Assembly (NCBI GenBank): GCA_017472635.1
Contig: JAFUPU010000025.1
Span: 1-37,310 of the forward strand
Source: Bacteroidaceae bacterium
Lineage (GTDB): Bacteria > Bacteroidota > Bacteroidia > Bacteroidales > Bacteroidaceae
DNA length: 37,310 nt
Reading direction: 5' to 3'
The stretch's first letter is position 1, and every line of letters starts with the position of its first letter. Below the pieces are notes generated by a model that worked only from the letters and a program-made list of their open reading frames with translations, was not told the origin of the DNA and did no database searches. Shown piece by piece: positions 814-20,853 of this stretch. The translations under genes and the position numbers were made by a program.

Positions 814-845
814 TTTGCACAGTTAACCATTTTTGCATATATTTG
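814..845 (+). promoter_or_regulatory. Bacteroidota-type promoter for the 850-1016 transcript
   Basis: TTTG at 814-817 (-33 box) and TATATTTG at 838-845 (-7 box, TAnnTTTG) are separated by exactly 20 bp. This is the closest match to the Bacteroidota housekeeping promoter in the first kilobase. A start of transcription near 850-852 is expected. The next gene starts at 1170, so the promoter serves either a long leader or an independent small RNA. Confidence 0.7.
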
Positions 846-1169: not shown

Positions 1170-3197
1170 ATGAAAACACTATTAAAAGGGATCCTTACCG
1201 CATTAATCATAGGAATAGGAAGCTGTTGTACAACAACTTACGCACAAACGGAAAAAGAGTCTAAGACTGAGTACACCTACAATCAAAAGGAAACTCCACA
1301 AGGCATAGACAATTATTTATTAGCAACTTATTATTATAACGGAAAGAAAACATTCAATCTCCGCAACTACTATATCAGCTCCACCTCGGGAGAGGTTATT
1401 TCTATGAAGATCAATCCTTCAGGAAGTTCTTTTGCCTTATTGACTCGCAAAGATCAAACAAATAGAGTTAGCATTCACGATCTTTGGGAAACCGAAAAGA
1501 AATTACATGAATTCAATAACTTATATAAACCTCAAAGCATATGTTATACTCCTGACGCCAAGAATCTTATAGTTGGCACTGAAAAATTCATTTTCACTTT
1601 TGACGCACGGACATATACAATAAAAGACAGAATGTCTATTCCCTTTGCCGCCCATTTAATAACAGTTAGCCCCAATGGATATTACTTAATTCGAAAAGAA
1701 TTTGAAATAAACGCTAAGATCAATTGTATTGCATTTTCTGATGACAGTAACACGTTTGCCGTTTTAACCGATGACGGGATTCTCTCCACTTATGAGACCA
1801 GTCAATTTTTCATTTTGCAAAACTACGAGGCCATGGGAGAAGCCTTGTACTGTGAATTTCACCCCGATAACAAATACATTTCTGTTGTTAGTAGTGACAA
1901 ACGCATTGCCATAATCAACCTTTTAGATGATAGTGACCGAACTTATATAGACAACTATACAGGCGGTACTTCTGAAACTCGTTTTGTAAAAGACAGAAAG
2001 ACACAAATTTTATTAGTCTATAACACTACCAACGGTGTCATCTACAAGTTAATGAGCGAACTCCCCCCTTACTATACCAAGTTGTTGGCTGATGAATTGG
2101 AAGCCAGAATGAATGATTGGATGAAACAAATGCCTAACGAAACATTGGAAGAATATAACTTGCGTGTCAACGAAGAGACCCGTATACAACAAATGCATTT
2201 ATTCGAGCAAGAAATAGCGACCCGCATGGCAGACAATATGGTACAAATGGCAAACATCTCTTTCGGTGATTATAATCCCGAATCAAACATGTTAGCTATC
2301 AAATTCGACAACATGCCTACCATTTATTTAGATGTACCAACTGATGAATTAAATTACTTTACAAATCCTAAAGATTTAGAATTCTATAACGTTAAATATG
2401 GTCTGACCAAAGAAGATAAATTTGAGCTTATATACGCTCATGTCCACAACAAAGTGACCGGCAAGACCTATATCTTTGACAACCAGAAACGCCAATCATT
2501 GGAATATTTAAAGTCTGATGAAAAGTTTGTACCAATTGAAGTAATCAAAGAATCCAACATGAAAGAATTGCGATTGATAGAAATCAAAGAAAATGTAGTA
2601 CAAATCGCAAAACAAAGCAATACAATTTCAGACCATACAAATATTTCTATTAAATCAAACGTCATCTCATCCACTGATGCTAACGGACAGAAGATTATGA
2701 ATTATGTGGTCAATTTCTCCTATCAAGTTAAATTAGGTTTTTCAGCACAAGAGGATTTTTCCCCTGGCAAATATAGAACCGAAGAATCAGGTGCAGCAAT
2801 GTCGATGCTTGCCATCATCAAACAGGCTTTCGAAGAAGAATTTTCGCCTTTTGTCGAAAGCGGCAAAAAGCTCCAAGTAAAGATTACGGGTATGGCTGAT
2901 GCACTTCCCATCAATGGACGCATTGCTTACGATGGTTGCTATGGGAACTACACCAACGAACCTGTTTATGTAAACAACGAACTGAGCAACCTCACCGTAG
3001 CCAGTACAAAAGGAGTGACCCAAAACGAACAATTAGCATTTTTGCGTGCATTGGGTGTTAAAAACCATATTTCAAAAAACATCAATGGTTTCTCAATCAT
3101 GAACACCGACTATAAATACTATATTGAAGTAAACCAAGGTAAAGGAGGAAAATTCCGTCGAACCAATGTAGAATTGACATTTATCGATGCATTATAA
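1170..3197 (+). CDS. exported beta-propeller-like protein, first gene of caspase operon
   Basis: 675 residues with an N-terminal export signal (hydrophobic segment about 5-25, ending TTTYAQ). SCC at about 18-20 could alternatively be a lipobox. Residues about 70-295 show repeated short beta-rich units with WD40-like phrases (ISMKINPSGSSFALL, INCIAFSDDSNTFAVL, ALYCEFHPDNKYISVV), suggesting a beta-propeller. Residues about 311-446 form a module also found in the next protein, with the core W..(Q)MPNETLEEYNLRVNEETR and a later TGKTYIFD. The C-terminal part (about 505-675), including KLQVKITGMADALPING, may be a peptidoglycan-binding or OmpA-like fold, but that is weak. The next start codon overlaps this gene's end, or lies 22 nt after it. 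I know no named family. A sensor or scaffold role for the caspase is inference from linkage. Confidence 0.8.
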   Translation: MKTLLKGILTALIIGIGSCCTTTYAQTEKESKTEYTYNQKETPQGIDNYLLATYYYNGKKTFNLRNYYISSTSGEVISMKINPSGSSFALLTRKDQTNRVSIHDLWETEKKLHEFNNLYKPQSICYTPDAKNLIVGTEKFIFTFDARTYTIKDRMSIPFAAHLITVSPNGYYLIRKEFEINAKINCIAFSDDSNTFAVLTDDGILSTYETSQFFILQNYEAMGEALYCEFHPDNKYISVVSSDKRIAIINLLDDSDRTYIDNYTGGTSETRFVKDRKTQILLVYNTTNGVIYKLMSELPPYYTKLLADELEARMNDWMKQMPNETLEEYNLRVNEETRIQQMHLFEQEIATRMADNMVQMANISFGDYNPESNMLAIKFDNMPTIYLDVPTDELNYFTNPKDLEFYNVKYGLTKEDKFELIYAHVHNKVTGKTYIFDNQKRQSLEYLKSDEKFVPIEVIKESNMKELRLIEIKENVVQIAKQSNTISDHTNISIKSNVISSTDANGQKIMNYVVNFSYQVKLGFSAQEDFSPGKYRTEESGAAMSMLAIIKQAFEEEFSPFVESGKKLQVKITGMADALPINGRIAYDGCYGNYTNEPVYVNNELSNLTVASTKGVTQNEQLAFLRALGVKNHISKNINGFSIMNTDYKYYIEVNQGKGGKFRRTNVELTFIDAL

Positions 3198-3219
3198 CAA
3201 AAAATATAAGATATACAGA

Positions 3220-5763
3220 ATGAAAAAATATACATTATTGCTATTCTTTTTATTTGGAGTATCCACGAACTTCCAGTTATCAGCACAAAGCCTCGAAGAT
3301 GCAATCAACAGTCATCTGCTATTCAAGAAATTACGTATAGAAAATGCACCTAAATCTGATATCTACGATGCTCTTTATGATTGCTACACAAAGTATGTAC
3401 CTCTCTTATTTGAGAATACCCCTAACACACAAATTTATGAGCGAGCCAAGCATGGTCTATACGAAATTCATCCTTTCCTTCAAAATGGCGCGTCGTATTA
3501 TTCAAGCCAAGGAATGCAACAAAAAGCATTATTGTTTGCACAAGCCTATATGGATATTCCTATGATGGAAGCTTTCAAAAATGATGTTTTTGCACGAAAA
3601 GAACATTTTGCCACAATAGCCTATTTTGCTGCCGCAGGTACATTCAACATACAGGATTATGGCAAGGCTATCAACTACTTCAAGGCATATTTAAGCACTA
3701 ACGAACAAGAACACCGCAAGGATGTATACACTTTTATGGCAAAGGCTTGCATAAACATAAAAGATTACGAGCAGGCTATGAACGTTCTTGATGAAGCGTG
3801 CGAACAATATCCATCAGATTTCAACCTACTTTCTAGTGCTATCAATCATTGCATAGAGCAAAAGGATTACACGAATTTACAACGGTTTATAGCCAAAGCT
3901 ATAGAACTTCGTCCCGAAGACGATACTTTACAAAATATTCAAGGTATGCTTTATGAAGAGACACTACAATTTCAAAAGGCATTACATATCTATACCCGCA
4001 TGAAACAAGCGAATCCTAACAGTCTAAGCATCAATCAACATATAGCTTTAAACTATTATAACTTAGGTGTATTACATTACAACAAAGCGAGTATCGAGAC
4101 TGACAAAAAAGATGCCAATCGATACAGACGCCAATCCCAAGAATATTTCTCAGCCGCTGCCACAACTTTAGAAACCATCATTGCCAACATCCCCAATTCT
4201 ACAAAATATATGCAAGCATTAGCTATAGCTTATAGCTGCATTGGAGACCAAAAACAATTAGAGACCGTTAATAGCAAATTATCAGACATAGGAGGAGAAA
4301 TCATTACCGTCAATACAATACCAGCGCTTATTTCTTACTCTGATAAGGAAACAACATCACCATCCTCTCCATCAGAACCCTATAATGACGAATTCTACAC
4401 ATCTAATTCCCACAAAGTGCCACGCTATTCACAATATGCCAAGGAATATGTAGAAAGTCGAATTAAAACATGGCAAGTCAAAGATCCTTATGAAACAGTT
4501 GCCGAGTATCAAATTCGAGTAAACGAGCAAAGTCGTGATGCCAAGGTTAAAGAACTTTTAAAAAAAGCGGAAGAAGAGTACATTGATAACTATGCTAAAC
4601 TCATACGTCTGAATGACCTCAATTTGCATACCTACGATGCTGATCATGAAACCTTCTTAATCGAATCAAAATACGGAAATTTGGTACTCTCCGTTCCCCG
4701 CGCCAATAACGAAGCCCGCATATTTGAAAACAGTTGGAGTGGCATACAGCTTAAAGACCCACTATTTTATATCAACAATGACAAGTTAATGTTACTAAGT
4801 TTGACTTTCGTTACACCTACTGGCAATACTTACCGTTACGACGGTGATAAAGCGTTAGACTATACAGAAACGGTAGTAAACATCAACTTCGATCCCATAC
4901 AAGGCGATTTGTATGCATCTAATTCAAACAATAATATACAACAAGGTAATATCAATCGCCAAGAAGTAAAAGCTGTATTACCACACTCTGATGTGGATAT
5001 TAATATCCCAAAAATAAAGAAAAAGAAAGAAAGTGTTTATGCACTAATTATTGCTAATGAGAACTATAGTATGGTATCAAAAGTACCTTATGCCCTGAAT
5101 GATGGTGAAATATTTGCCCAATATTGCGAAAAGACATTGGGATTGCCGTCACGAAACATACTGCTTTACCGGGATGCCTCCTATGGTATCATGCTCAACG
5201 CCATGGAAAGAATCAAGCGACTCTCCAAGGCACGTGGAGGCGACATAAAGATCATCTTCTATTATGCCGGACATGGTGTTCCCGATGAAACCAGCCGGGA
5301 AGCCTACCTGCTTCCTATTGACTCTGACGGCAAACAGACAAAGGTCTGTTATCCGCTGAACGACCTCTACAAAGAGTTAGGTAACCTACAAGCTGAATCA
5401 GTCGCAATATTCTTAGATGCGTGTTTTAGCGGAGCCAAACGCAATGGTGGCATGGTCACCGATGCACGCGGTGTAGCCATCAAACCACGTCCTACAGCAC
5501 CGACCGGTCGAATGGTGGTATTCAGTGCAGCCTCAGACACCGAAACAGCCCTACCCTATGAAGAAAAAGAGCACGGCATGTTCACCTACTTCCTGCTTAA
5601 GAAGTTGCAAGAGACTAAAGGCAATGTCACCATGAAAGAATTAGGAAATTACATTCGTAAACGTGTAACCAGCGAGTCGGTACTTATCAACAACAAATTG
5701 CAAACCCCAACTGTCAGACCATCGGATAACATTTCCGAAATTTGGGAAGATATGAAGTTATAA
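3220..5763 (+). CDS. exported TPR-caspase-like (C14) protease
   Basis: 847 residues from the ATG at 3220, chosen over the ATG at 3187 because it gives a clean signal peptide (MKKYTLLLFFLFGVS..LSAQ). Residues about 130-350 are TPR-like helical repeats (KDYEQAMNVLDEACEQYP, QFQKALHIYTRMKQANP). Residues about 412-549 repeat the module of the preceding protein (W....DPYETVAEYQIRVNEQSR, later TGNTYRYD). A lysine-rich hinge at about 597-603 leads into a caspase-like p20 domain. There the catalytic pair is visible: His685 in YYAGHG and Cys735 in LDACFSG, both intact. The length and fusion are unusual. Base composition rises sharply around 5150, inside the protease domain. The target is unknown, and activity after export is inferred. 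Confidence 0.88.
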   Translation: MKKYTLLLFFLFGVSTNFQLSAQSLEDAINSHLLFKKLRIENAPKSDIYDALYDCYTKYVPLLFENTPNTQIYERAKHGLYEIHPFLQNGASYYSSQGMQQKALLFAQAYMDIPMMEAFKNDVFARKEHFATIAYFAAAGTFNIQDYGKAINYFKAYLSTNEQEHRKDVYTFMAKACINIKDYEQAMNVLDEACEQYPSDFNLLSSAINHCIEQKDYTNLQRFIAKAIELRPEDDTLQNIQGMLYEETLQFQKALHIYTRMKQANPNSLSINQHIALNYYNLGVLHYNKASIETDKKDANRYRRQSQEYFSAAATTLETIIANIPNSTKYMQALAIAYSCIGDQKQLETVNSKLSDIGGEIITVNTIPALISYSDKETTSPSSPSEPYNDEFYTSNSHKVPRYSQYAKEYVESRIKTWQVKDPYETVAEYQIRVNEQSRDAKVKELLKKAEEEYIDNYAKLIRLNDLNLHTYDADHETFLIESKYGNLVLSVPRANNEARIFENSWSGIQLKDPLFYINNDKLMLLSLTFVTPTGNTYRYDGDKALDYTETVVNINFDPIQGDLYASNSNNNIQQGNINRQEVKAVLPHSDVDINIPKIKKKKESVYALIIANENYSMVSKVPYALNDGEIFAQYCEKTLGLPSRNILLYRDASYGIMLNAMERIKRLSKARGGDIKIIFYYAGHGVPDETSREAYLLPIDSDGKQTKVCYPLNDLYKELGNLQAESVAIFLDACFSGAKRNGGMVTDARGVAIKPRPTAPTGRMVVFSAASDTETALPYEEKEHGMFTYFLLKKLQETKGNVTMKELGNYIRKRVTSESVLINNKLQTPTVRPSDNISEIWEDMKL

Positions 5764-5807
5764 CCTATAATAGAGATATTATTAACAGACAAAAATATGT
5801 AAAAAAA

Positions 5808-6680
5808 ATGAAAGTCTTTCACCTATATATCACCTTATACCTATTTTTATCTTCCGTTGTACTCCACGCCCAACAGACAGAAAAGGTGCGTGCCGAATAC
5901 ATCTATTATGCACCTGAGAATGTAACTTTGGAGGCAGCCAAGCGCACTGCATTGGAGCGTGCCAAAATACAAGCCATTGCCGATGAATTCGGCACAATGG
6001 TGTCGCAAAGCAATGCCACCTTCATGACCAATCGGGATGGAGAGTCGAACACCGACTTCTTCTCTTTGGGAGGAAGTGAAGTGAAAGGTGAATGGATAGA
6101 GACCATCGGCGAACCTGCGTACAGCATCAGCTACGAACAAGGGATGTTGGCGGTAAAATGTGTTGTAAACGGACGGATACGTGAAATCACAACCAATCAG
6201 GTTGACTTAAAGATAGAGATTTTACGCAATGGAACTGAAAAGAGGTTCGAATCGGACAGATTTAAAAACGGAGATGACTTCTTCCTCAATTTTCAGTCCC
6301 CCAAAGACGGTTACCTTGCAGTCTATCTGGTTGATGGCACCCAAACAGCCTACTGTCTGTTGCCATACCGTTCGCAGACCGAAGGCATATTCCCGGTAAA
6401 AGCGAACCAGCCGTATACGTTATTCTCTATCAAACATGCCCCTATAGCAGAGAGGCAACTGGTTGACGAATATGTGATGACAACCGCCCAAATGGCTGAA
6501 TACAACCAAGTTTATGTCATCTATTCGCCCAACCCTTTCACTAAAGCGATAGATATGCGCGGAGGAACACTCATCCCCCGCACACTCTCGTTTGAAGATT
6601 TCCATAAATGGCTTGCTGATTGCCGCAAGTCAGACAAAGAGATGCAGGTGAGAAACAGCACCATCTTGATTGAGAAATAA
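5808..6680 (+). CDS. exported DUF4384 protein, third gene of caspase operon
   Basis: 290 residues from the ATG at 5808; an upstream in-frame ATG at 5742 overlaps the caspase gene and would hide the signal peptide (MKVFHLYITLYLFLSSVVLHAQ). Residues about 40-65 (LEAAKRTALERAKIQAIADEFG) resemble the N-terminal part of LPP20/FlgT-like proteins. Residues about 133-245 fit DUF4384: KRFESDRFKNGDDFFL, DGYLAVYLVDG, and a later YVIYSPNPF. DUF4384 domains are known to occur beside or fused to caspase-like proteases, which matches the neighbour. It follows the caspase stop by 44 nt and is probably cotranscribed. Its function is unknown; envelope location is inferred from the signal peptide. Confidence 0.8.
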   Translation: MKVFHLYITLYLFLSSVVLHAQQTEKVRAEYIYYAPENVTLEAAKRTALERAKIQAIADEFGTMVSQSNATFMTNRDGESNTDFFSLGGSEVKGEWIETIGEPAYSISYEQGMLAVKCVVNGRIREITTNQVDLKIEILRNGTEKRFESDRFKNGDDFFLNFQSPKDGYLAVYLVDGTQTAYCLLPYRSQTEGIFPVKANQPYTLFSIKHAPIAERQLVDEYVMTTAQMAEYNQVYVIYSPNPFTKAIDMRGGTLIPRTLSFEDFHKWLADCRKSDKEMQVRNSTILIEK

Positions 6681-7054: not shown

Positions 7055-7423
7055 TTAAGGGTTATCCTTGAGATACTCCCCATAGAGACGTGCCACCCCT
7101 TCGGGTGAGAGTCCCATTTCGCGGAACTGTTTCAATATCTCCGGCAACTCCACCTGCATAAAGTGGGTTTTACGTTGCTGTCTTATAGCCTCAACAGCTC
7201 CGTGTGAGACAAAATAGCCTAACCCGCGCTTGTTGTAGATGATTTCCTGACTCTGCAGGTAATCGTAGCTACGTACCACAGTGTTGACATTGACCTCAAC
7301 GGTAACGGCATATTCGCGTACAGAGGGGATACGTCCCTCTTCGACATAAAGTCCCTGACAGATTTCGTCGCAGATACGGTCTGCAATCTGCAGATAGATG
7401 GGGCAGCTCTCTTTAAACTTCAT
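7055..7423 (-). CDS. GntR-family transcriptional regulator, YtrA type
   Basis: 122 residues. The N-terminal winged helix-turn-helix is clear: PIYLQIADRICDEI, then GRIPSVREYAVTVEVNVNTVVRSYDYL and the wing IIYNKRGLGYFV. Only a short tail follows instead of a large effector domain, which is the hallmark of the YtrA subgroup. These regulators normally repress ABC-transporter operons of which they are part. Here the ATG shares one base with the permease stop (TGATG), indicating translational coupling. The operator is probably the dyad at 9239-9278, which would make the operon self-repressed. The inducer is unknown; in other bacteria it is often cell-envelope stress. Confidence 0.9.
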   Translation of the reverse strand: MKFKESCPIYLQIADRICDEICQGLYVEEGRIPSVREYAVTVEVNVNTVVRSYDYLQSQEIIYNKRGLGYFVSHGAVEAIRQQRKTHFMQVELPEILKQFREMGLSPEGVARLYGEYLKDNP

Positions 7424-8313
7424 CAGGCAATAATCTTTATACGGGTGAAAAACTTATAAGAGAGCCAATAGTGGAACAGTGTCAACAGGCAAAGCAGCCA
7501 GGTTGCTCCATGCATCACCATCCGTCCGTAAGCCTCCAACTCTTCCACATCGAGGTGTTGTAACTTCTCGGCAAGTCCGAATATCCAATTATAGACATCG
7601 ATATAGTACTCATGCAACAGAGTGAGCACCAGCAACGAGCCAACCGAGAATAGCACAATGCAGCCAACCACAATGCCCAGAAGGACCTTTACGGCTGCAC
7701 TTTTCCGCCAATAGTTGGCAAGCAGGCAGACCATATAGAGCGACTGGAACCAGGCAAGGAAGGCATAATAGATGAAAGGTGTACCCGCCACAAAGAGTCC
7801 GTTTGCCGATATGCCTATATCCTCAGAGAGGGAGACAGGTGCTCCGCTAAGCAACAACATCGAATAGCCGGCAGGCATATCGAAGAAGAGATTTGCCAAA
7901 AGGTATGCTGTGATGTCAGCCAAAAGCAAACCGAAGAGACAGAACAAAAATGCACCCAATGTGACGCGAAGAAGGCAGGCTGCAAATTTCTCGGAGTTGC
8001 TTGCCGGAAGCATCAAGGTGTTCACCCGCTCTTCTTTTGTGTTTACCCCCTGAATGGCCGTCACTGCAAACATCATCAGCAGCAAGAATCCCCACGACTG
8101 TGCGCTCATATACATACCCATATAGTCAATCGTAGAAATGTGTCCGATGACTGAAGCGGTATAGGCACTACCAAGGAACTTATAAAGCAAGATACCCACA
8201 TAAAATCCGCCATAGGTCAGATAGGTCTTTTTATTTTCAGTCCAATCTTTCTTGAGTAACCATCCCAAGCGGGTGGCACTGAATGTCTTATTCATTATTG
8301 CATTATCCATCAT
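7423..8313 (-). CDS. ABC-2 type transporter permease subunit
   Basis: 296 residues with about six hydrophobic segments, for example YGGFYVGILLYKFLG, GFLLLMMFAVTAIQG, VLLGIVVGCIVLFSVG and the last one at the C terminus (LLCLLTLFHYWLSY). The N terminus is a short amphipathic cytoplasmic stretch (RLGWLLKKDWTEN), as in ABC-2 permeases. Three in-frame ATG codons (8313, 8310, 8295) could serve as start. The ATPase gene lies upstream by about 50 bp and the GntR gene overlaps the stop. The substrate cannot be told from sequence. Confidence 0.85.
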   Translation of the reverse strand: MMDNAIMNKTFSATRLGWLLKKDWTENKKTYLTYGGFYVGILLYKFLGSAYTASVIGHISTIDYMGMYMSAQSWGFLLLMMFAVTAIQGVNTKEERVNTLMLPASNSEKFAACLLRVTLGAFLFCLFGLLLADITAYLLANLFFDMPAGYSMLLLSGAPVSLSEDIGISANGLFVAGTPFIYYAFLAWFQSLYMVCLLANYWRKSAAVKVLLGIVVGCIVLFSVGSLLVLTLLHEYYIDVYNWIFGLAEKLQHLDVEELEAYGRMVMHGATWLLCLLTLFHYWLSYKFFTRIKIIA

Positions 8314-8364
8314 TTTTCAATTTTAGCAGTAATCATTCTTTTTTTTCTTTATCAGTACAAGCTA

Positions 8365-9207
8365 TCAGTCGGTAAAGACCTGTGCCATCTGCTGAGGATG
8401 AGCCAATGTAGCATTGAAGAGGAGTTCGAGATTGAGCGTTGTATGCTCCTCGCCCAATCGGTTAGGAAGGACGACGCTTTGCCCCTGCACCGAAGGTTGG
8501 GTATAGAGTTCGTCCCCTGTAAGTTCACCGGCTGTGAGTTCGGCAAAGCAGAGACGACGACAGATATCACTCACCGAACGGTTGAGCAACGTGCGGCTAC
8601 CATCGATGATGATGACATGGTCGAGCAGGCTGTCTATATCTCGTACCTGGTGGGTAGAGATGACAACCGTTTTATCTTCAGTCATACCCGAAGCCACTGC
8701 ACGCCGGAACTGACTCTTAGAGGGGATGTCCAATCCGTTGCTCGGCTCGTCCATCACTAAAAACCGGGTGTTGGTAGCGAGGGCAAAACACATGTACGCT
8801 TTCTTTTTCTGCCCCATAGAAAGTTCGCCCAAATGGATATCTTCATTCATGTCAAAATCGCGCAAGCAAGAGCGAAGCAACTCATCGCTGAAACGTGGAT
8901 AGAAAGAGCGATTGAGGCTGACATACTTCCGAAGAGTGACACGTGGCAATGCAAATTCTTCGGGAACGATAAACATTTCACCCAATGTTTGGGGAAGGCG
9001 GTGTCTTACATCTATACCTTTATAATATATACCCCCCTTTTGTGGACGAAGGAGACCGGTCATCAAGTAGAGCAAGGTTGACTTACCGGTCCCATTCTTC
9101 CCCAACAATCCACAAATTTTCCCTTCGCCCAGCGAAAGAGAAAAGTTCTCAAAAACTTTCTGCCTGCGGTTGTATCCGAAGGTCAGTTCTTTTACTTCCA
9201 TCATCAT
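8365..9207 (-). CDS. ABC transporter ATP-binding protein
   Basis: 280 residues from the first of three consecutive ATG codons (9207, 9204, 9201); an upstream TTG at 9219 is possible but less likely. All nucleotide-binding motifs are present: Walker A GKNGTGKST, signature LSMGQ, Walker B FLVMDEPSNGLD and switch His in STHQ. It is the first gene of a three-gene operon with the permease and the YtrA-type regulator, so it is the ATPase half of an ABC-2 exporter or envelope-stress transporter. The C-terminal extension after about residue 205 is not a recognised domain. Confidence 0.92.
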   Translation of the reverse strand: MMMEVKELTFGYNRRQKVFENFSLSLGEGKICGLLGKNGTGKSTLLYLMTGLLRPQKGGIYYKGIDVRHRLPQTLGEMFIVPEEFALPRVTLRKYVSLNRSFYPRFSDELLRSCLRDFDMNEDIHLGELSMGQKKKAYMCFALATNTRFLVMDEPSNGLDIPSKSQFRRAVASGMTEDKTVVISTHQVRDIDSLLDHVIIIDGSRTLLNRSVSDICRRLCFAELTAGELTGDELYTQPSVQGQSVVLPNRLGEEHTTLNLELLFNATLAHPQQMAQVFTD

Positions 9208-9238
9208 AGTTTTATTCAATTAATATGTGTATTAGTTA

Positions 9239-9490: not shown

Positions 9491-10630
9491 TTATTTCAGC
9501 TTATAGACTTCAACACCTGCAAGCAGGAAGCATCCCAATCCATAATCCTCAAAGTCAGGAACACTCTCGTAAGTAACGGGTTGACCGTCTTTCGGCTCCT
9601 TACCGGTTCCTTGCACATAACCGAGGAATCCATTGGGATGGACAGCCTCTTTCACCATTGCATTCCATGCCTTGAGCAAAACAGGCAGGTATTCTTTACG
9701 ATCAAGAATACCCTTGCGGATACCCCAAGCCATACCATAGACAAAGAGTGAAGTGCCGCTGACCTCCTTACCACCATAGTTGCTCTCGTCATGCATACTC
9801 ACATTCCAATATCCATCTTTGCGCTGGCAAGCCTTGATAGCCTTACTCATAGCTACAAAATCGTTGATATAGTCTTGACGATGCTTCTCGTCAGCCGGGA
9901 TTTCATCCAACACACGTACAAGTGCTGCATAAACCCATCCGTTTCCGCGTGCCCAATAACAGTCTTCGCCATTCGGTTCTTTATAGGGAGGATCGAAATC
10001 GTGGTCGCGCCACCAAAGACCATCCTTGGGGTTATACATTCCATGCTCGCCATGTTGGTTGCGGGTGTATGAATACATATCCCACATCTTGTCGAAGTAG
10101 CGTTGGTCGTTTCCTTTCTCTACACCCAACTTGGCAAAGATGGGCATCGCCATCTGCACGGCATCAATCCACCACCAATCATTCACCTGAGGTGTATTGA
10201 CCAACATCGTCATACAGGCATCGATGCTACGAATCATACGACGGTCGCCGGTCAAGCGGTACATATCAATATAGGTTTGTCCACAGCATTGGTCATCAGC
10301 ATCGCGACTGGTACTACCATTACGTATCAGCCAATCGTGGCTCTCACCCCAGCGATAGGTATAATCGTAATACTCCTCTGAAGGATAGATGCCATAGAGT
10401 GCCATCAATCCTTCATAATATACGGCACGTGTCCACAAATGACTGGGACGCATCTTATTGCGCACAAAAGTAGGAATACCGGGGTCGGCATTCTTGTTCA
10501 TAAAATACTTGTTCACCTTAATGAGTGTCTTCAATGTCTCCTTTTGATCGGGTAATGTCTGAGCAGTCACTACCGAAAAAGCAGCCGACACCACTAAAGC
10601 CAATGCGATTAACAGTGTTTTTTTCTTCAT
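9491..10630 (-). CDS. GH105 unsaturated rhamnogalacturonyl hydrolase
   Basis: 379 residues with a signal peptide (MKKKTLLIALALVVSAAFSVVTAQ). The fold signature of GH88/GH105 alpha-barrel hydrolases is present: RDADDQCCGQTYIDMY, NDWWWIDAVQMAMP with the presumed catalytic Asp, and CYWARGNGWVYAALVRVLDEIP. Such enzymes remove the unsaturated galacturonic acid that rhamnogalacturonan lyases leave at oligosaccharide ends. It is divergent from the PL11 lyase gene and shares its intergenic control region. GH88 is a less likely alternative; the context with PL11 and rhamnose mutarotase favours GH105. Confidence 0.88.
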   Translation of the reverse strand: MKKKTLLIALALVVSAAFSVVTAQTLPDQKETLKTLIKVNKYFMNKNADPGIPTFVRNKMRPSHLWTRAVYYEGLMALYGIYPSEEYYDYTYRWGESHDWLIRNGSTSRDADDQCCGQTYIDMYRLTGDRRMIRSIDACMTMLVNTPQVNDWWWIDAVQMAMPIFAKLGVEKGNDQRYFDKMWDMYSYTRNQHGEHGMYNPKDGLWWRDHDFDPPYKEPNGEDCYWARGNGWVYAALVRVLDEIPADEKHRQDYINDFVAMSKAIKACQRKDGYWNVSMHDESNYGGKEVSGTSLFVYGMAWGIRKGILDRKEYLPVLLKAWNAMVKEAVHPNGFLGYVQGTGKEPKDGQPVTYESVPDFEDYGLGCFLLAGVEVYKLK

Positions 10631-10693
10631 TGTTTTGAATAGTTTTGCGGTTATTTAACTTATTGTTTCATTCCAAATCATATCTTTATGGCG

Positions 10694-10701
10694 CAAATAT
10701 A
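10694..10701 (-). promoter_or_regulatory. -7 box for the GH105 gene
   Basis: TATATTTG on the minus strand (CAAATATA on plus) fits TAnnTTTG and lies about 65 bp upstream of the GH105 start. No matching -33 TTTG is found at the right distance, which would fit a promoter needing an activator. Confidence 0.5.
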
Positions 10702-10790
10702 AGAATAAAACTTTGTTTTTAAGAATAAAAAAGATACCTTATTGTATTTTTTTTGCTTTTTATGTCAGAAAACTCACAAACACGATAAAA

Positions 10791-10805
10791 TATATCGTCG
10801 ATATA
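10791..10805. promoter_or_regulatory. dyad upstream of the PL11 promoter
   Basis: TATATCG-T-CGATATA is a perfect 15-bp dyad. It ends 11 bp before the -7 box of the rhamnogalacturonan operon, where the -33 box would be. It is a candidate regulator site for the divergent pectin-degradation genes; the regulator is not in this window. Confidence 0.5.
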
Positions 10806-10816
10806 AGTTTAATTTG

Positions 10817-10824
10817 TATATTTG
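10817..10824 (+). promoter_or_regulatory. -7 box of the PL11-GH105-mutarotase operon
   Basis: TATATTTG fits TAnnTTTG, followed by GCAGCAC and a leader of about 35 nt to the ATG at 10866. There is no TTTG at the -33 position; the dyad at 10791-10805 sits there instead. Confidence 0.6.
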
Positions 10825-10865
10825 CAGCACCATTAATTACTCAAACACTTCAAAACAATTATCAA

Positions 10866-12971
10866 ATGAACATTGCAAGAATGACCAAAACATGCATTGC
10901 ACTGCTAACATGCAGTGTAATGAGCACAGCACAACCGCATTATGATTTCACACAGATGCAGCGTGAAGAACTGGGACGCGGAGTAGTAGCCCTCAAACAA
11001 GATGAGAAGACTGTATGCATCAGTTGGAGGTATCTCTCGACCGACCCAATAGAAACGAAGTTCAACATTTACCGGGACGGAACCCAAATAGGTACAACCG
11101 GATCTACACAACCGACCATGTGGGTTGACACGGATGCAACAGCAGGGCAGGCACACGTATATGAGGTACGCCCGGTAGTGAATGGCATCGAGGCAAACGA
11201 GAAGCAAGGGAGATTCACCCTCTCCACACAAAAAGAGGCCGGATACTTGAACATCCCACTGAACCGTCCACAAAAAGGAAAAACCCCAATGGGCGATGAA
11301 TATAGCTACAATGCTAACGATGCCAGCATCGGTGATGTGGATGGAGACGGAGAATATGAGATTATCCTAAAATGGGATCCAAGTAACGCACACGACAATG
11401 CACACGACGGATATACAGGCAATGTAATATTTGACTGCTACAAACTGACCGGTGAACAACTGTGGCGTATCGATTTGGGAAGAAATATCCGTGCCGGAGC
11501 ACACTACACCCAATTTATGGTATACGACCTTGATGGAGACGGAAAAGCCGAAGTGGTGATGAAAACATCAGACGGAACCATTGACGGCACAGGTGCTGTC
11601 ATCGGTAACCCTGATGCTGATTACCGTGAGATGGGAGATACCGTAGGATATGCCAAGCGCGTAGCTGAGATGAGAAAGAGATGGGCAGAACGAGAAAAAG
11701 AGATGAAAGCCGAATGGGCAAAAATGGAACAAGAACGTAAAGAACGGGAAGCACGCGGTGAAAAGTTTGAACCACGTCCGGGGGATAGGAACAGACGTCC
11801 TGCACCTCAAGGCGGACAGCGCAGATGGAGGTTCCGGAACCCTGCTCCCAAAAACCAAGGACGTATCCTCACCGGCAATGAATACCTGACAGTCTTCAGC
11901 GGAGAGACAGGAAAGGCGCTGGCTACTATCGACTATGTGCCTGCACGCGGTGATTTAAGAGGTTGGGGAGATGGAAATGCCAACCGAAGCGACCGCTATC
12001 TGGCATGCGTTGCCTATCTCGATGGCAAACGTCCCAGTGTTGTAATGTGCCGTGGATATTATACCCGCACTGTATTAGCCGCTTTTGACTGGGATGGGAA
12101 GAACCTGACAAAACGTTGGGTATTTGACAGCAATGATGACGGCAACAAACATTATGCAGGACAAGGCAACCACAACTTGCGAGTAGGTGACGTAGACGGT
12201 GACGGATGCGATGAAATCATCTATGGCTCAATGGCTGTGGATCATGATGGAAAAGGGCTCTACACCACCCGAATGGGACATGGAGATGCCATGCACCTGA
12301 CTGCTTTCTATCCCGACTCAGAAAAGTTGCAAGTGTGGGATTGCCACGAAAACAGAAAAGACGGCTCTACTTTCCGCGAAGCAGCTACCGGAAAGGTAAT
12401 CTTCCAACTGAAATCAAACATGGATGTCGGACGTTGTATGGCTTCTGATATTGACCCCACTTCATGGGGAGTGGAGATGTGGTCATTAGCATCGGGAGGA
12501 ATCCGAAACGTTAAGGGGAAAGTAATCAATAAGGAGGTTAGAGGATTGCCATGCAACATGGCAGTATGGTGGGACGGTGACTTGTCACGCGAACTGTTAA
12601 ATGGAACTGCCATATCAAAATACGACCACAAGAGTGGTACCTGCAACAGAGTAGTCACTTTCGAAGGATGTGTATCAAACAACAGTTCCAAATCAAATCC
12701 TGCTTTGCAGGGAGATATCGTAGGCGACTGGCGCGAAGAGGTGATTGTGCGCACAGAAGACAATAGCGCATTGAGAGTCTATGTCTCTACCATTCCCACA
12801 GAATACCGCTTCCACACATTCCTCGAAGACCCGGTTTACCGCATCAGCATTGCCACACAAAATGTGGCTTACAACCAACCGACCCAACCCGGATTCTACT
12901 TCGGAACGGACTTGAAAGAGGGCTTATTCAGAGGATTCAACATCAAAAAAACAAATAACCCGAAAAAATAA
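10866..12971 (+). CDS. rhamnogalacturonan lyase, family PL11
   Basis: 701 residues from the ATG at 10866, chosen because it gives a signal peptide (MTKTCIALLTCSVMSTAQ); the frame is open further upstream but lies across the promoter. A fibronectin-like N-terminal domain (about 25-120) is followed by the PL11 beta-propeller with calcium-binding loops DVDGDGEYE (about 157), DLDGDGKAE (about 221) and DVDGDGCDE (about 490). It cleaves the rhamnogalacturonan I backbone by beta-elimination, probably in the periplasm or on the surface. A strongly charged insert at about 262-332 (RKRWAEREKEMKAEW..., then Pro/Arg-rich) interrupts the propeller and makes it longer than the usual roughly 600 residues. 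First gene of a three-gene operon. Confidence 0.92.
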   Translation: MNIARMTKTCIALLTCSVMSTAQPHYDFTQMQREELGRGVVALKQDEKTVCISWRYLSTDPIETKFNIYRDGTQIGTTGSTQPTMWVDTDATAGQAHVYEVRPVVNGIEANEKQGRFTLSTQKEAGYLNIPLNRPQKGKTPMGDEYSYNANDASIGDVDGDGEYEIILKWDPSNAHDNAHDGYTGNVIFDCYKLTGEQLWRIDLGRNIRAGAHYTQFMVYDLDGDGKAEVVMKTSDGTIDGTGAVIGNPDADYREMGDTVGYAKRVAEMRKRWAEREKEMKAEWAKMEQERKEREARGEKFEPRPGDRNRRPAPQGGQRRWRFRNPAPKNQGRILTGNEYLTVFSGETGKALATIDYVPARGDLRGWGDGNANRSDRYLACVAYLDGKRPSVVMCRGYYTRTVLAAFDWDGKNLTKRWVFDSNDDGNKHYAGQGNHNLRVGDVDGDGCDEIIYGSMAVDHDGKGLYTTRMGHGDAMHLTAFYPDSEKLQVWDCHENRKDGSTFREAATGKVIFQLKSNMDVGRCMASDIDPTSWGVEMWSLASGGIRNVKGKVINKEVRGLPCNMAVWWDGDLSRELLNGTAISKYDHKSGTCNRVVTFEGCVSNNSSKSNPALQGDIVGDWREEVIVRTEDNSALRVYVSTIPTEYRFHTFLEDPVYRISIATQNVAYNQPTQPGFYFGTDLKEGLFRGFNIKKTNNPKK

Positions 12972-12975
12972 TCAC

Positions 12976-14385
12976 ATGAAAGTAAAGACCCTAAGCATGA
13001 TGGGGGCTATAGTACTCTTATCTATTACAGGTGAGGTCTATGCCCAAAAAAAAGAGAAAGAGATAAACGACTCAAACACACCGTTGCATTTGCTGAAGCC
13101 TGACTACCAGACTCCCTATGGCGCTCCCACGGTCGAACAGGTTAAAGCAACCATGGATCGCGTGCTGAACTACCTTGAGGGATGTACCCCAACCCGAGTC
13201 GTAAACAAAAACAATGGGAAAACCATCACCGACTATGCCCACATGGGACCTGAAGCACAAGTCGAGCGCGGAACCTTCCGACTAACCAGCTATGAATGGG
13301 GGGTAACCTATTCAGCAATGTTAGCTGCAACAGAAGCCACCGGTGACCCGGCATATAGCAATTATGCAATCAACCGCTTCAAGTTTTTGAACGAGGTGGC
13401 TCCGCACTTCAAGAAACTGATAGAGAAACACGGGAAAGAGATAGACCCACTGATGCGTCAGATGTTAACTCCCAAGGCATTGGACGATGCCGGTGCCGTA
13501 TGTGCAGCTATGATAAAGGCACAACAGAAAGATCCTACGTTGAACTTAAACCAGCTGATTGAGAATTACATCGACTTCATTGTCAACAAGGAGTACCGAC
13601 TTGCCGACGGAACCTTTGCACGTACCCGTCCATTCTACAACACCTTGTGGTTAGACGACATGTTCATGGGCATCCCTCCTATTGCCCAATATGCAACAAT
13701 TGCCGGTGAAAAACAAGCACACTATCTTGCAGAGGCAGTCAGACAGATATTGCAATTCAAGGAACGCATGTGGGTGCCTGAGAAGAATCTGTTCCGCCAT
13801 GGTTGGGTAGAAGAGATGCAAGACCATCCGGCATTTCATTGGGCACGTGCCAACGGATGGGCTTTGCTAACCCTATGTGAAGTGTTGGATGTATTACCTG
13901 ATAACTACCCACAGCGCGACAAGTTAATGGAGTTATACCGCAATCATGTACGCGGATTGGCTGCCCTCCAAAGTGGTGAAGGACTTTGGCACCAACTGCT
14001 CGACCGTCCCGACTCATACTTGGAGACATCAGCAACAGCCATCTATGCCTACTGTATTGCACATGGTATAAACAAAGGATGGATTGATGCAATGGCATAT
14101 GGTCCGGTTGCCACATTGGCATGGAATGCTGTAACCACCCAAATAAACGAAAAGGGACAAGTAGGAGGAACTTGTGTCGGCACAGGTATGGCTTTCGACC
14201 CGGCATTCTACTGTTACCGTCCTGTAACAGTATATGCAGCCCATGGTTATGGTCCGGTTATCTGGGCAGGAGCTGAAATCATCAATCTACTGAAAAATCA
14301 GCATCCTAAAATGAATGACAGCGCAACCTTGTTTTATCAGACAGAGCAAACCACCAATCAACCGATTTTCCACGAAAAGAGATAA
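12976..14385 (+). CDS. GH105 family hydrolase, second paralogue
   Basis: 469 residues with a signal peptide (MKVKTLSMMGAIVLLSITGEVYAQ). GH105/GH88 features: TLWLDDMFMGIPPIAQY with the presumed catalytic Asp, HWARANGWALLTLCEVLDVLP and SGEGLWHQLLDRPDSYLETSATA. It starts 4 bp after the PL11 stop and is surely cotranscribed. It is 90 residues longer than the GH105 at 9491 and only distantly similar to it, so the two may act on different unsaturated oligosaccharides made by the lyase. The exact substrate is not visible. Confidence 0.88.
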   Translation: MKVKTLSMMGAIVLLSITGEVYAQKKEKEINDSNTPLHLLKPDYQTPYGAPTVEQVKATMDRVLNYLEGCTPTRVVNKNNGKTITDYAHMGPEAQVERGTFRLTSYEWGVTYSAMLAATEATGDPAYSNYAINRFKFLNEVAPHFKKLIEKHGKEIDPLMRQMLTPKALDDAGAVCAAMIKAQQKDPTLNLNQLIENYIDFIVNKEYRLADGTFARTRPFYNTLWLDDMFMGIPPIAQYATIAGEKQAHYLAEAVRQILQFKERMWVPEKNLFRHGWVEEMQDHPAFHWARANGWALLTLCEVLDVLPDNYPQRDKLMELYRNHVRGLAALQSGEGLWHQLLDRPDSYLETSATAIYAYCIAHGINKGWIDAMAYGPVATLAWNAVTTQINEKGQVGGTCVGTGMAFDPAFYCYRPVTVYAAHGYGPVIWAGAEIINLLKNQHPKMNDSATLFYQTEQTTNQPIFHEKR

Positions 14386-14410
14386 CATTAACCCATAAAA
14401 GTAATATAAT

Positions 14411-14725
14411 ATGAGAAGAGAAGCATTCAAAATGTTCTTGAAGCCAGGCTTTGAGGAAGAATATGAAAGACGTCACGCTGCCATTTGGCCTGAGTTGAAA
14501 GAGTTATTGTCGAAAAACGGAGTCTTTGATTACTCTATCTATTGGGACAAAGATACCAATATCCTTTTCGCTTTCCAGAAAGTAGAGGGCGAAGAGTCTT
14601 CACAAGACATGGGAACCAACCCCATCGTACAGAAATGGTGGGATTATATGGCTGACATCATGGAGGTGAACCCAGACAACTCTCCCATCAGCATCCCATT
14701 GCCTGAAGTATTCCACATGGATTAA
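14411..14725 (+). CDS. rhaM: L-rhamnose mutarotase
   Basis: 104 residues, the normal length of the family. Hallmarks are RREAFKMFLKPGFEEEYERRH with the catalytic-type His, IWPELKELL, YSIYWD and VQKWWDYMADIM. It interconverts the alpha and beta anomers of L-rhamnose and acts in the cytoplasm, as there is no signal peptide. It follows the GH105 stop by 25 bp in the same operon, so the locus supplies rhamnose released from rhamnogalacturonan I to catabolism. The isomerase and kinase are not in this window. Confidence 0.93.
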   Translation: MRREAFKMFLKPGFEEEYERRHAAIWPELKELLSKNGVFDYSIYWDKDTNILFAFQKVEGEESSQDMGTNPIVQKWWDYMADIMEVNPDNSPISIPLPEVFHMD

Positions 14726-18786: not shown

Positions 18787-20853
18787 ATGAGCAGATATAA
18801 CACCCCCCACCGCATGAGCCGCGCAATGATGCTTTACAAGATAGGAATCACTGTCGCCACTATAGCACTTATTGTATACTTCTTGCCCAGAGAACGGAAA
18901 TACACTTACCAGTTTGAGACGGGCAAACCGTGGAGATATGGCCAGTTGATAGCCACATTCGACTTTCCCATATACAAAAATGAAGCAACCGTAAAAAATG
19001 AGCAAGACAGTGCGTTGAAACAGTTTCACCCATACTACAAACGCGAAAATAATGTAGCACAAGACAAAACCAAAGAACTGGAAATCCACTGGGGAGCAGA
19101 GATAAAAGCCGGCAAGACCTCCCCTAATGCAAGATACCAAAGCTACATCCGACAGACGTTGCGCCAACTATACCGACAAGGCATAATAAGCAGTGAAGAC
19201 CTAAAGAAGTTGGAAGAAGACAATATTAAAAAAATCCGATTGGTCGAAAACAATATAGCCACCATAGTGGATATCAACGAACTGCTCACCGTAAAACAGG
19301 CATACGAACGCTTGGTGACAGGAGATAGCACCGAATACAGCCCGAGCATCCTCAGGGGATATAACCTACATGAATTTTTAACGCCAAACATCATATACGA
19401 CAAACAAAAATCAGAAGCTGCCATAAACGAACTATTGGCTGCTATCCCATGGAGCAGTGGTATGGTAGTAACCGGAACCAAAATCATAGACCGGGGCGAG
19501 ATCGTAGACGAACGCACCTATAATATATTAGAATCGCTTTGCAAAGAGACCGACAAAAGAAGCGAGACCACTACACAGAAACGTTTGACATTAGGCGGAC
19601 AAATTTTATTCACCACCATACTTATTGCCTGTTTCATATTTTATCTTGACCTGTTCAGACTTGACTATTACAATCGCCGACGAACCATCCTCTTGTTGAT
19701 GGGATTGTTGGTATTCTATCCTGTCATCACATCACTGATGGTCAGTCACAACTTACTGAATGTCTACATCATCCCCTTTGCCATGGCTCCAATGATTGTG
19801 CGGGTATTCATGGATTCACGCACAGCCTTCATGTTACACATTGTCATGATTCTCATCTGTTCGATGACACTGCGTTATCCCTACGAGTTCATTCTGGTAC
19901 AATTCATAGCCGGTCTTACTGCTGTATACAGTCTGCGTGAGTTGTCTGAACGTTCACAACTGCTCAAAGCGGCTCTGCTTGTGACATTGGCAAGCATGCT
20001 CCTCTATTTCGCCTACGAACTGATGCACACCGATGACCTCACCAAATTGGATACCAACATGTACATCTATCTGACCATAGGCGGCATCTTACTCTTATTT
20101 ACCTACCCGTTATTGTTTATGCTGGAGAAGACTTTCGGTTTCACCAGCAATGTGACATTGGTGGAACTTTCAAACATCAACACTCCATTGCTACGAAGAA
20201 TGTCGGAAGTAGCACCAGGCACATTCCAACACTCACTGCAAGTGGCAAACTTGGCTACCGAAGCGGCACGTACGGTAGGAGCACGCAGCCAACTGGTACG
20301 TACAGGGGCTTTGTATCACGACATCGGGAAAATAGAGAATCCGGCATTCTTCACCGAGAACCAGTCGGGAGTAAATCCGCATCAGAGTTTAACTGAACAA
20401 GAGAGCGCTCAAATAATCATAGGACATGTTACCGACGGATTGAAACTTGCCGAGAAATATGCACTACCGGGAGTGATAAAAGATTTCATTGCTACACACC
20501 ATGGAGTGGGAATGGTCAAATATTTCTATATCTCCTACCTCAACAACCACCCCGATGAAGAGATAGACAAGCAACAATTCACTTACCCCGGTCCTAATCC
20601 GTCGACACTCGAAGAGGCAATTTTGATGATGGCTGACGCTGTAGAGGCGGCATCCAGAAGCCTGCCCGAATATACCGAAGAAGCCATTGCCGAACTGATA
20701 GAGAAAATCATAGACGGACAAACGGCAGATGGTGTATTCCGCCAATGCCCCATCACTTTCAAGGACATCGAGAGCATAAAGGGTGTATTCAAAGAGAAAC
20801 TCAAGACCGTATATCACACCCGAATCAGCTACCCGGAAATAAAGAAGAAATGA
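18787..20853 (+). CDS. 7TM-HD domain phosphodiesterase, PgpH type
   Basis: 688 residues. One N-terminal membrane helix (about 14-32) precedes an extracytoplasmic domain of about 230 residues of the 7TMR-HDED kind. A cluster of about seven membrane segments follows (about 270-465), then a cytoplasmic HD domain. There FQHSLQVANLATEAA, LYHDIGKIENP (HD at residues 511-512) and THHGVG supply the metal ligands. Proteins of this architecture (PgpH/YqfF) hydrolyse cyclic di-AMP. The stop overlaps the priA start (ATGA), giving translational coupling. Confidence 0.9.
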   Translation: MSRYNTPHRMSRAMMLYKIGITVATIALIVYFLPRERKYTYQFETGKPWRYGQLIATFDFPIYKNEATVKNEQDSALKQFHPYYKRENNVAQDKTKELEIHWGAEIKAGKTSPNARYQSYIRQTLRQLYRQGIISSEDLKKLEEDNIKKIRLVENNIATIVDINELLTVKQAYERLVTGDSTEYSPSILRGYNLHEFLTPNIIYDKQKSEAAINELLAAIPWSSGMVVTGTKIIDRGEIVDERTYNILESLCKETDKRSETTTQKRLTLGGQILFTTILIACFIFYLDLFRLDYYNRRRTILLLMGLLVFYPVITSLMVSHNLLNVYIIPFAMAPMIVRVFMDSRTAFMLHIVMILICSMTLRYPYEFILVQFIAGLTAVYSLRELSERSQLLKAALLVTLASMLLYFAYELMHTDDLTKLDTNMYIYLTIGGILLLFTYPLLFMLEKTFGFTSNVTLVELSNINTPLLRRMSEVAPGTFQHSLQVANLATEAARTVGARSQLVRTGALYHDIGKIENPAFFTENQSGVNPHQSLTEQESAQIIIGHVTDGLKLAEKYALPGVIKDFIATHHGVGMVKYFYISYLNNHPDEEIDKQQFTYPGPNPSTLEEAILMMADAVEAASRSLPEYTEEAIAELIEKIIDGQTADGVFRQCPITFKDIESIKGVFKEKLKTVYHTRISYPEIKKK

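What the first reader, a model, noticed from the sequence alone, without database searches (positions are those of the whole stretch)
1170..6680. Three-gene exported caspase operon: propeller-like protein, TPR-caspase, DUF4384 protein
Three tandem genes encode proteins that all carry export signals. The middle one has an intact caspase-type His/Cys pair (YYAGHG, LDACFSG). Prokaryotic caspase-like proteases are mostly discussed as cytoplasmic defence or regulated-death effectors; here the whole set looks periplasmic or envelope-bound, with a possible sensor (propeller) and a DUF4384 partner. The gene order and the shared module argue for one working system rather than chance neighbours. It is the best candidate here for an undescribed system.
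Basis: partly seen in the sequence, partly recalled or inferred. Interest (0 to 1): 0.85.

Follow-up and report, generated by a model that had tools for sequence, protein, structure and literature searches.

The report
Envelope-anchored bacterial caspase gene cluster
An uncultured bacterium, apparently of the Bacteroidetes group, carries a conserved set of exported proteins that appears to tether an intact caspase-like protease to its own cell wall, outside the cytoplasm where bacterial caspases are usually discussed; what the protease cuts is not known.

Summary
Three tandem genes (1170-3197, start-corrected 3220-5763, 5808-6680) encode proteins with export signals ending in the Bacteroidetes A|Q pattern. 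Protein 2 has TPRs, a linker module and a caspase domain with intact His696/Cys746. In two homologues an outer-membrane beta-barrel stands in place of the propeller. Protein 3 is a DUF4384 protein.

The set is conserved: 12 of 12 examined protein 1 homologues sit directly upstream of a TPR-caspase, and a protein 3 homologue lies nearby in 9 of 10 propeller-type loci (6 families). Of 393 genomes of the order, 42 have protein 3; 41 of these also have a related caspase. The trio is one version of a larger exported cluster that also involves a 225-aa family and a transglutaminase-like family.

Best reading: a peptidoglycan-tethered periplasmic caspase complex for envelope surveillance or processing. 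Export and linkage are well supported; trigger, substrate and outcome are inferred. Seven literature searches listed no description, but a 2012 survey already noted OmpA domains in metacaspase operons.

The parts
1170..3197 (+). P1: exported propeller / shared module / OmpA-like protein (675 aa)
   Evidence: ORF; Pfam; homologues; alignment
1170..1244 (+). P1 signal peptide, predicted cleavage A25|Q26 (a possible lipobox IGSC lies inside it)
   Evidence: sequence; scan
1365..1998 (+). P1 WD40-type beta-propeller region (about residues 66-276)
   Evidence: Pfam propeller/WD40 matches, best E 2.8e-12, all below curated cut-offs; 10 of 12 homologues match; solved WD40 protein 2ymu, E 1.2e-11
2067..2540 (+). 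P1 copy of the shared module (about residues 300-457)
   Evidence: hhalign to the P2 module: probability 98.7, P 2.6e-16
2745..3191 (+). P1 divergent OmpA-type peptidoglycan-binding domain, with D577 and R626
   Evidence: hhalign to 24 OmpA domains of related genomes: probability 93.2, P 2.9e-7; eight other domains at most 1.6; D577/R626 and an RR pair in 15 of 15
3220..5763 (+). P2: exported TPR / shared module / caspase protein (847 aa from ATG 3220)
3220..3285 (+). P2 signal peptide, cleavage A|Q
   Evidence: scan
3601..4089 (+). P2 TPR region
   Evidence: Pfam TPR_14 1.7e-8 and related models; solved TPR proteins by sequence
4396..4896 (+). P2 copy of the shared module (about residues 404-570 of the 858-aa ORF)
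5038..5718 (+). P2 caspase domain (Peptidase_C14); His696 codon 5272-5274, Cys746 codon 5422-5424
   Evidence: Pfam 68.7 bits, cut-off 21.4; H and C invariant in 14 of 14, aligned in 67 of 68
5808..6680 (+). P3: exported DUF4384 protein (290 aa from ATG 5808)
6261..6530 (+). P3 DUF4384 domain
   Evidence: E 7.7e-6, 26.3 bits, cut-off 27
814..845 (+). possible Bacteroides-type promoter (TTTG-N-TAnnTTTG, motif recalled), weak
   Evidence: 5 matches in the window, 2.0 expected, 7 of 100 shuffles reach 5: not significant

Best explanation
The three genes encode parts of one periplasmic protease complex held at the cell wall. Supported by sequence evidence: all three proteins are exported; P2 carries an intact caspase; P1 ends in an OmpA-type domain with the peptidoglycan-binding residues; P1 and P2 share a homologous module; the gene set is conserved as a unit. 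Inferred: P1 anchors the complex to peptidoglycan and offers its propeller (or, in some homologues, an outer-membrane barrel) as a sensing or docking surface; the shared modules let P1 and P2 assemble with each other or with a common partner; the TPRs bind clients; the caspase cleaves envelope proteins when a stress or assembly cue is met; P3, and the 225-aa and transglutaminase-like proteins encoded in related clusters, act as regulators, substrates or downstream enzymes. I lean to envelope surveillance or remodelling rather than cell suicide, without direct evidence for the outcome.
For: Export: A|Q signal peptides across homologues. Anchor: OmpA-profile match with flat controls and both DAP ligands in 15 of 15 (Asp271 and Arg286 of A. 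baumannii OmpA are named as DAP ligands in the passage of PMC5974059; their place in the motif is recalled). Envelope context: two of 12 P1 homologues match an OMP barrel model (PF13505, best E 4.6e-8; that these are L039 and L041, which lack the propeller, is read), and OMP barrels lie inside the second own-genome cluster. One system: P1-P2 adjacency in 12 of 12 examined loci, gaps -20 to 195 nt; 11 of the 12 were found with P1 itself as query, the one in G042 through its caspase. P3 in 9 of 10 propeller loci. P1 and P2 distances correlate at 0.90, 0 of 5000 permutations (shared species history alone could give this). Caspase fused to the P1 C-terminal domain in G255 and G232. 41 of 42 P3 genomes have a caspase, versus 107 of 351 without P3 (Fisher P 2e-18, no phylogenetic correction). 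31 of 47 P3 genes have a caspase in the fetched stretch on either strand, 28 within 2 kb. Modular input: ten related caspases scanned carry LRR_5 (4), WG-repeat (3), TPR (2) or WD40 (1) N-termini.
Against: No structure supports it: the single-sequence model of the module plus OmpA part had mean pLDDT 40.6. PF00691 is not listed for the window P1, and a profile search of the PDB gave no OmpA hit. 16 of 47 P3 loci show no caspase in the fetched stretch, some but not all at contig ends. The transglutaminase-like and 225-aa families also occur together with no caspase in the stretch read (L189, L190). In the window neither of these two partners lies next to the trio; the own genome has them elsewhere. 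The P3 of G297 is so distant that the single-sequence search missed it. Substrate, trigger and activity are unknown.
Confidence: 0.5

Rival explanations
1. Surface-protein maturase: the caspase processes exported fimbrillin-like or Lcl_C lipoproteins before display, as the clan-CD protease Arg-gingipain does for fimbrillin precursors (recalled).
For: In G002 the genes after P2 are a CarboxypepD_reg protein and a lipoprotein with Mfa_like_1 (6.5e-20) and a sub-cut-off Lcl_C match; G005 and G010 have homologues of both. A lipoprotein profile built from these also matches genes beside other caspases, e.g. L067, L068, L069.
Against: No gene of these families was labelled next to the window trio or in G266, G290, G409 or G433 in the stretches read. 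The iterated lipoprotein profile may have drifted to a common domain. Protein 1's cell-wall anchor is not explained by this role.
Confidence: 0.17
2. Regulated-death or anti-phage module acting from the envelope: an infection or damage cue unleashes the caspase to break the envelope.
For: Patchy distribution (P3 in 42 of 393, P1 at E < 1e-50 in 7 of 393), several caspases per genome (four in this one) with varied N-terminal repeat domains, generic PADLOC caspase model hit (E 2e-11).
Against: No other PADLOC model hits the trio; the window neighbours that were scanned are pectin-degradation, SusCD-type, regulatory and housekeeping genes; an exported location is unusual for phage sensing.
Confidence: 0.13
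3. Type IX secretion accessory, comparable to PorE.
For: The second caspase cluster of the same genome follows porL-porM-porN by about 0.9 kb. PorE combines TPR, propeller, CRD and OmpA_C (PMC5053529, passages), domain kinds found here on separate proteins.
Against: G266 carries the exact trio yet has no GldM match although 96% complete (50 contigs), and GldM is in 245 of 267 genomes, so co-occurrence says nothing.
Confidence: 0.06
4. Secreted toxin or toxin-processing protease acting on other cells.
For: Caspase domains occur as processing or toxin domains of polymorphic toxins, in Bacteroidetes too (PMC3482391, passages).
Against: No further domain was found after the caspase; P1 would hold the complex at the producer's own wall. 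Immunity genes were not searched for.
Confidence: 0.05

Closest known systems
Prokaryotic metacaspases / orthocaspases (PF00656), survey PMC3501461 (passages seen)
   Same: Same catalytic domain and His-Cys dyad; TPR and WD40 partners are common; the survey found OmpA domains in 14 of 217 predicted metacaspase operons and N-terminal membrane segments that might be signal peptides.
   Different: The passages read describe no conserved exported gene set with a DUF4384 partner, shared module or peptidoglycan anchor.
PorE / PG1058 of the type IX secretion system, PMC5053529 (passages seen)
   Same: Periplasmic, outer-membrane-linked protein with propeller and OmpA_C-like domain; TPR and CRD also present.
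   Different: All four domains are in one chain and none is a protease; here propeller plus OmpA-like (P1) and TPR plus caspase (P2) are separate, and a trio-bearing genome has no GldM match (G266).
DUF4384 proteins (PF14326), including an alphaproteobacterial pseudo-orthocaspase clade, PMC6426788 (passages seen)
   Same: DUF4384 is linked with caspase-type proteins.
   Different: There it sits on QC-dyad pseudo-orthocaspases; here it is a separate exported protein beside an intact HC caspase.
OmpA / Pal / TolB systems (recalled)
   Same: Peptidoglycan-binding domain combined with a propeller or barrel at the envelope.
   Different: No protease component.
Arg-gingipain fimbrillin processing (recalled)
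   Same: Clan-CD cysteine protease acting on exported Bacteroidales proteins.
   Different: Family C25, brought to the cell surface by T9SS; no wall-anchored partner of this kind.

Membership tests
Peptidase_C14 (caspase family) | Domain score over the curated cut-off | tested here: met
   68.7 bits against 21.4, profile positions 3-224 of 233
Peptidase_C14 (caspase family) | Catalytic His-Cys dyad | tested here: met
   H696 and C746; 67 of 68 related caspases
Peptidase_C14 (caspase family) | Proteolytic activity | not testable with these tools
   needs protein
OmpA_C-like peptidoglycan-binding domain | Profile similarity to OmpA domains | tested here: met
   hhalign 93.2, P 2.9e-7; eight control domains at most 1.6
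OmpA_C-like peptidoglycan-binding domain | Match to Pfam PF00691 | tested here: not met
   not among the 11 families listed for the window protein at E <= 1; the list by members was cut at 25 of 64 families
OmpA_C-like peptidoglycan-binding domain | Asp and Arg that bind diaminopimelate | tested here: met
   D577 and R626 in 15 of 15; 48 residues lie between them, against 14 in A. baumannii OmpA by the residue numbers
DUF4384 | Score over the curated cut-off | tested here: inconclusive
   26.3 against 27 in the window protein; 21 of 28 homologues match at E <= 1
PorE | TPR, propeller, CRD and OmpA_C in one chain | tested here: not met
   P1 has propeller and OmpA-like only
Type IX secretion component | Occurs only with the T9SS core | tested here: not met
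   G266 has the trio and no GldM match at E <= 0.001; its assembly is 96% complete
Cytoplasmic caspase-type defence effectors (TPR-CHAT/Craspase, CBASS-like; recalled) | Cytoplasmic protein beside a nucleic-acid or nucleotide sensor | tested here: not met
   A|Q signal peptide; no such gene named among the window proteins scanned
Gasdermin-protease pairs (recalled) | Gasdermin gene next to the protease | tested here: inconclusive
   none named among the neighbours scanned, but not every neighbour was scanned
Transglutaminase-like superfamily (FRX partner, not in the window trio) | Cys-His-Asp triad motif | tested here: met
   C, H and D conserved in 21 of 21; DUF553 21.0 bits against 20.5 in L186, below cut-off in L045

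The most novel reading that the evidence does not exclude
Bacteroidota use a modular, exported caspase surveillance machinery: interchangeable sensor regions (TPR, LRR, WG-repeat, WD40) feed a constant active caspase in the periplasm, tethered to peptidoglycan or the outer membrane by a dedicated anchor protein and working with DUF4384, 225-aa and transglutaminase-like partners to read and act on envelope damage, an extracytoplasmic counterpart of cytosolic caspase pathways.
Probability: 0.3. Interest if true: 0.85.

Novelty: new variant of a known kind. Interest (0 to 1): 0.62.

Why it matters
Bacterial caspase homologues are mainly discussed in cytoplasmic death and defence. A conserved, wall-anchored, exported version with a defined set of partners would give these proteases a different job and a clear place to look for substrates, and makes the role of DUF4384 and of exported caspases in Bacteroidota testable by simple gene removals and fractionation.

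Tried and rejected
T9SS link: the porLMN neighbour of the second cluster suggested it; GldM is near-universal (245 of 267) and has no match in trio-bearing G266, so it was dropped as a requirement. Relation of P3's N-terminal part to the 225-aa family: hhalign 2.4, not supported. PDB searches for the P1 C-terminus, P3 and the caspase domain gave nothing useful (best E 0.29, 1.7, 0.15). Viral-contig searches with P1, P3 and the caspase domain found no relative. Sigma-70 and terminator scans were within two standard deviations of the shuffles. The single-sequence structure model was too poor to use (mean pLDDT 40.6), so no fold search was run. The first OmpA extraction read half of the loci on the wrong strand; it was redone before any comparison.

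Method limits: my ORF picker dropped real genes hidden by longer reverse ORFs, for example the transglutaminase-like gene of L046 seen only, so neighbourhood counts are lower bounds. The genome searches scored few candidates per genome (at most 3, 6), so presence counts are lower bounds too. One further P1 fragment (G297:C67) was not examined. Duplicate loci L110 and L056 were left out of the counts; the 47 P3 loci do not repeat a P3 gene (48 rows, one gene split over two rows). Weak P1 hits that match only the module, the WD40 part or the C-terminus were not counted as P1. Which taxon the window comes from was not tested; Bacteroidota is inferred from the A|Q pattern, the one named relative and the GldM matches.
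Full report
What is there. The window is one contig (C89) of a 2.14 Mb, 65% complete genome in 119 contigs. The A|Q signal peptides, a named Bacteroidetes relative and GldM matches point to Bacteroidota (inference). Three plus-strand genes run from 1170 to 6680. Reading the joints puts the second start at ATG 3220 and the third at ATG 5808, with gaps of 22 and 44 nt. Each product starts with a charged, hydrophobic leader followed by Ala|Gln, the Bacteroidetes Q-rule for signal peptidase I (PMC5837995, abstract and outline). A simple scan finds this pattern in 15 of 15 ORFs labelled P1 (12 full homologues, three partial), 50 of 68 caspases and 40 of 51 P3 homologues, versus 70 of 307 other ORFs of 200 aa or more in the same loci. 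It is not SignalP, but the consistency makes misassigned signal peptides unlikely.

Protein 2. Pfam gives TPR repeats and a full caspase domain (PF00656, 68.7 bits, cut-off 21.4). His696 and Cys746 are invariant in the 14-sequence alignment and aligned in 67 of 68 related caspases. Between TPRs and caspase lies a roughly 165-residue module.

Protein 1. The N-terminal half matches WD40-type propeller models, all below their curated cut-offs, and a solved WD40 protein (E 1.2e-11); 10 of 12 homologues match the propeller models, best E 3.3e-26. A module homologous to that of protein 2 follows (hhalign 98.7, P 2.6e-16). The last 150 residues looked OmpA-like by eye, although no Pfam OmpA match was listed for the window protein and a PDB profile search found nothing. 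I therefore aligned 24 OmpA domains, out of the 32 PF00691 matches found in six related genomes, and compared profiles. The P1 C-terminus scores 93.2 with P 2.9e-7, while eight other domains of this system score at most 1.6 against the same OmpA profile. The match pairs D577 with the Asp of the G-H-T-D motif and R626 with the Arg of LSxxRA. Asp271 and Arg286 of A. baumannii OmpA bind diaminopimelate (passage of PMC5974059; that these are the same motif positions is recalled). Both residues are present in 15 of 15 homologues. Two of the 12 P1 homologues match an outer-membrane beta-barrel model instead of the propeller (PF13505, best E 4.6e-8); from the alignment these are L039 and L041, the classic OmpA layout.

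Protein 3. DUF4384 scores 26.3 against a cut-off of 27; 21 of 28 homologues match at E <= 1. Its N-terminal part has no confident family.

Conservation. P1 was sought in the 15 held genomes of the genus (4 with a match) and in 393 genomes of the order (24 with any match, 7 at E below 1e-50). Twelve P1 homologues could be examined in context, 11 found with P1 as query and one (G042) through its caspase. All twelve lie directly upstream of a TPR-caspase on the same strand, at -20 to 195 nt. Ten carry the propeller, in six families of the order (own family, G266, G290, G370 and G433, G409, G297). Of these ten, the P3 gene is directly next in five (window, G266, G290, G433, G409), lies a few genes downstream in three (G005, G010, G370), lies upstream as a distant homologue in one (G297, missed, found by profile), and is not seen in one whose contig ends (G002). 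P1 and P2 sequence distances correlate at 0.90, which shared ancestry alone may explain.

A larger system. P3 was found in 42 of 393 genomes, the caspase domain in 148 of 393. 41 of the 42 P3 genomes have the caspase, against 107 of 351 others (not corrected for phylogeny). In 47 P3 neighbourhoods, 31 contain a caspase gene and 28 have one within 2 kb; 26 contain a second small exported protein of about 225 aa; 11 contain neither. A further partner, called FRX here, has a transglutaminase-like domain with Cys, His and Asp motifs in 21 of 21 sequences and one member over the DUF553 cut-off. FRX is present in 95 of 393 genomes and in 30 of 42 P3 genomes, and in 11 of 11 P1-bearing genomes searched, with the 225-aa family in 9 of 11. 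The window's own genome has a second cluster on C86: 225-aa protein, DUF4384 protein, barrel, two caspases, barrel, FRX. Ten caspases of related loci keep the same C-terminal domain while the N-terminus varies: LRR_5 in four, WG repeats in three, TPR in two, WD40 in one. In G255 and G232 the P1-type C-terminal domain is fused to a caspase, which independently ties anchor and protease together.

Interpretation. Supported by the sequence: export, intact catalytic dyad, OmpA-type domain with its ligand residues, shared module, conserved linkage. Inferred: that P1 tethers P2, that the propeller and repeats sense something, and that cleavage of envelope proteins is the output. I put 0.5 on the peptidoglycan-tethered envelope protease model. 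The best rival is maturation of surface lipoproteins, suggested by fimbrillin-like or Lcl_C-bearing lipoproteins in the same gene group of three close relatives but not labelled beside the window trio. A defence or death role is not excluded. A T9SS role was considered because the second cluster follows porLMN, and is disfavoured because GldM is nearly universal and has no match in G266, which has the exact trio.

What is known. The 2012 survey of prokaryotic caspase homologues (PMC3501461, passages) reports OmpA domains in 14 metacaspase operons, 98 sequences classed as membrane, the majority with an N-terminal helix that might be a signal peptide, and multi-metacaspase operons in Bacteroidetes among other groups. 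PMC6426788 (passages) mentions DUF4384 on an alphaproteobacterial pseudo-orthocaspase clade. PorE/PG1058 (PMC5053529, passages) shares domain kinds. The passages of PMC4933709, a Baltic metacaspase survey, do not mention such a system. Seven searches for the combination (open-access library only) listed no paper on an exported Bacteroidota caspase-DUF4384 set; searches matched 454, 781, 1,104 and 40 papers, of which 20 each were listed. So the parts are known and the conserved wall-anchored combination appears undescribed in what I saw: a new variant of a known kind.

Limits.

Noticed in passing
G000:C86 (L046 4267-11612): Second exported caspase cluster in the same genome (225-aa protein, DUF4384 protein, OMP barrel, two tandem caspases, OMP barrel, transglutaminase-like protein), starting about 0.9 kb after porL-porM-porN of the type IX secretion system.
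   Followed up: partly
L189 4551-11822 (G010:C20), L190 2492-8339 (G290:C28): The 225-aa and transglutaminase-like families also occur together with no caspase in the stretch read; in L189 they flank a PEGA/FGE-sulfatase protein and a protein with a sub-cut-off LPP20 match. The two further genes of this group in L190 look similar but were not scanned.
   Followed up: partly
L186 3186-5399 (G005:C23): The transglutaminase-like partner carries a C-terminal WG-repeat match in this genome, the same repeat type that heads some of the caspases.
   Followed up: no
L120, L123, L124, L125 (G398, G142, G333, G245): In this genus the DUF4384 gene is followed by a conserved 611-aa exported-looking protein and no caspase was labelled in the stretch.
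   Followed up: no
window 9491-14725: Pectin-degradation group: two GH88 proteins, a family 11 rhamnogalacturonan lyase and L-rhamnose mutarotase.
   Followed up: no
window 7055-9219: Minus-strand GntR regulator, a protein without Pfam match and an ABC ATPase directly after the caspase trio, convergent with it.
   Followed up: no
window 18787-20853: 7TM-HD receptor-type phosphohydrolase ORF overlapping the start of the mechanically called PriA-type helicase ORF.
   Followed up: no
L112 and L148, TPR-caspase genes: In these two loci the shared module of protein 2 was not detected; in L112 a CARDB match stands in its place, while protein 1 keeps its module.
   Followed up: no
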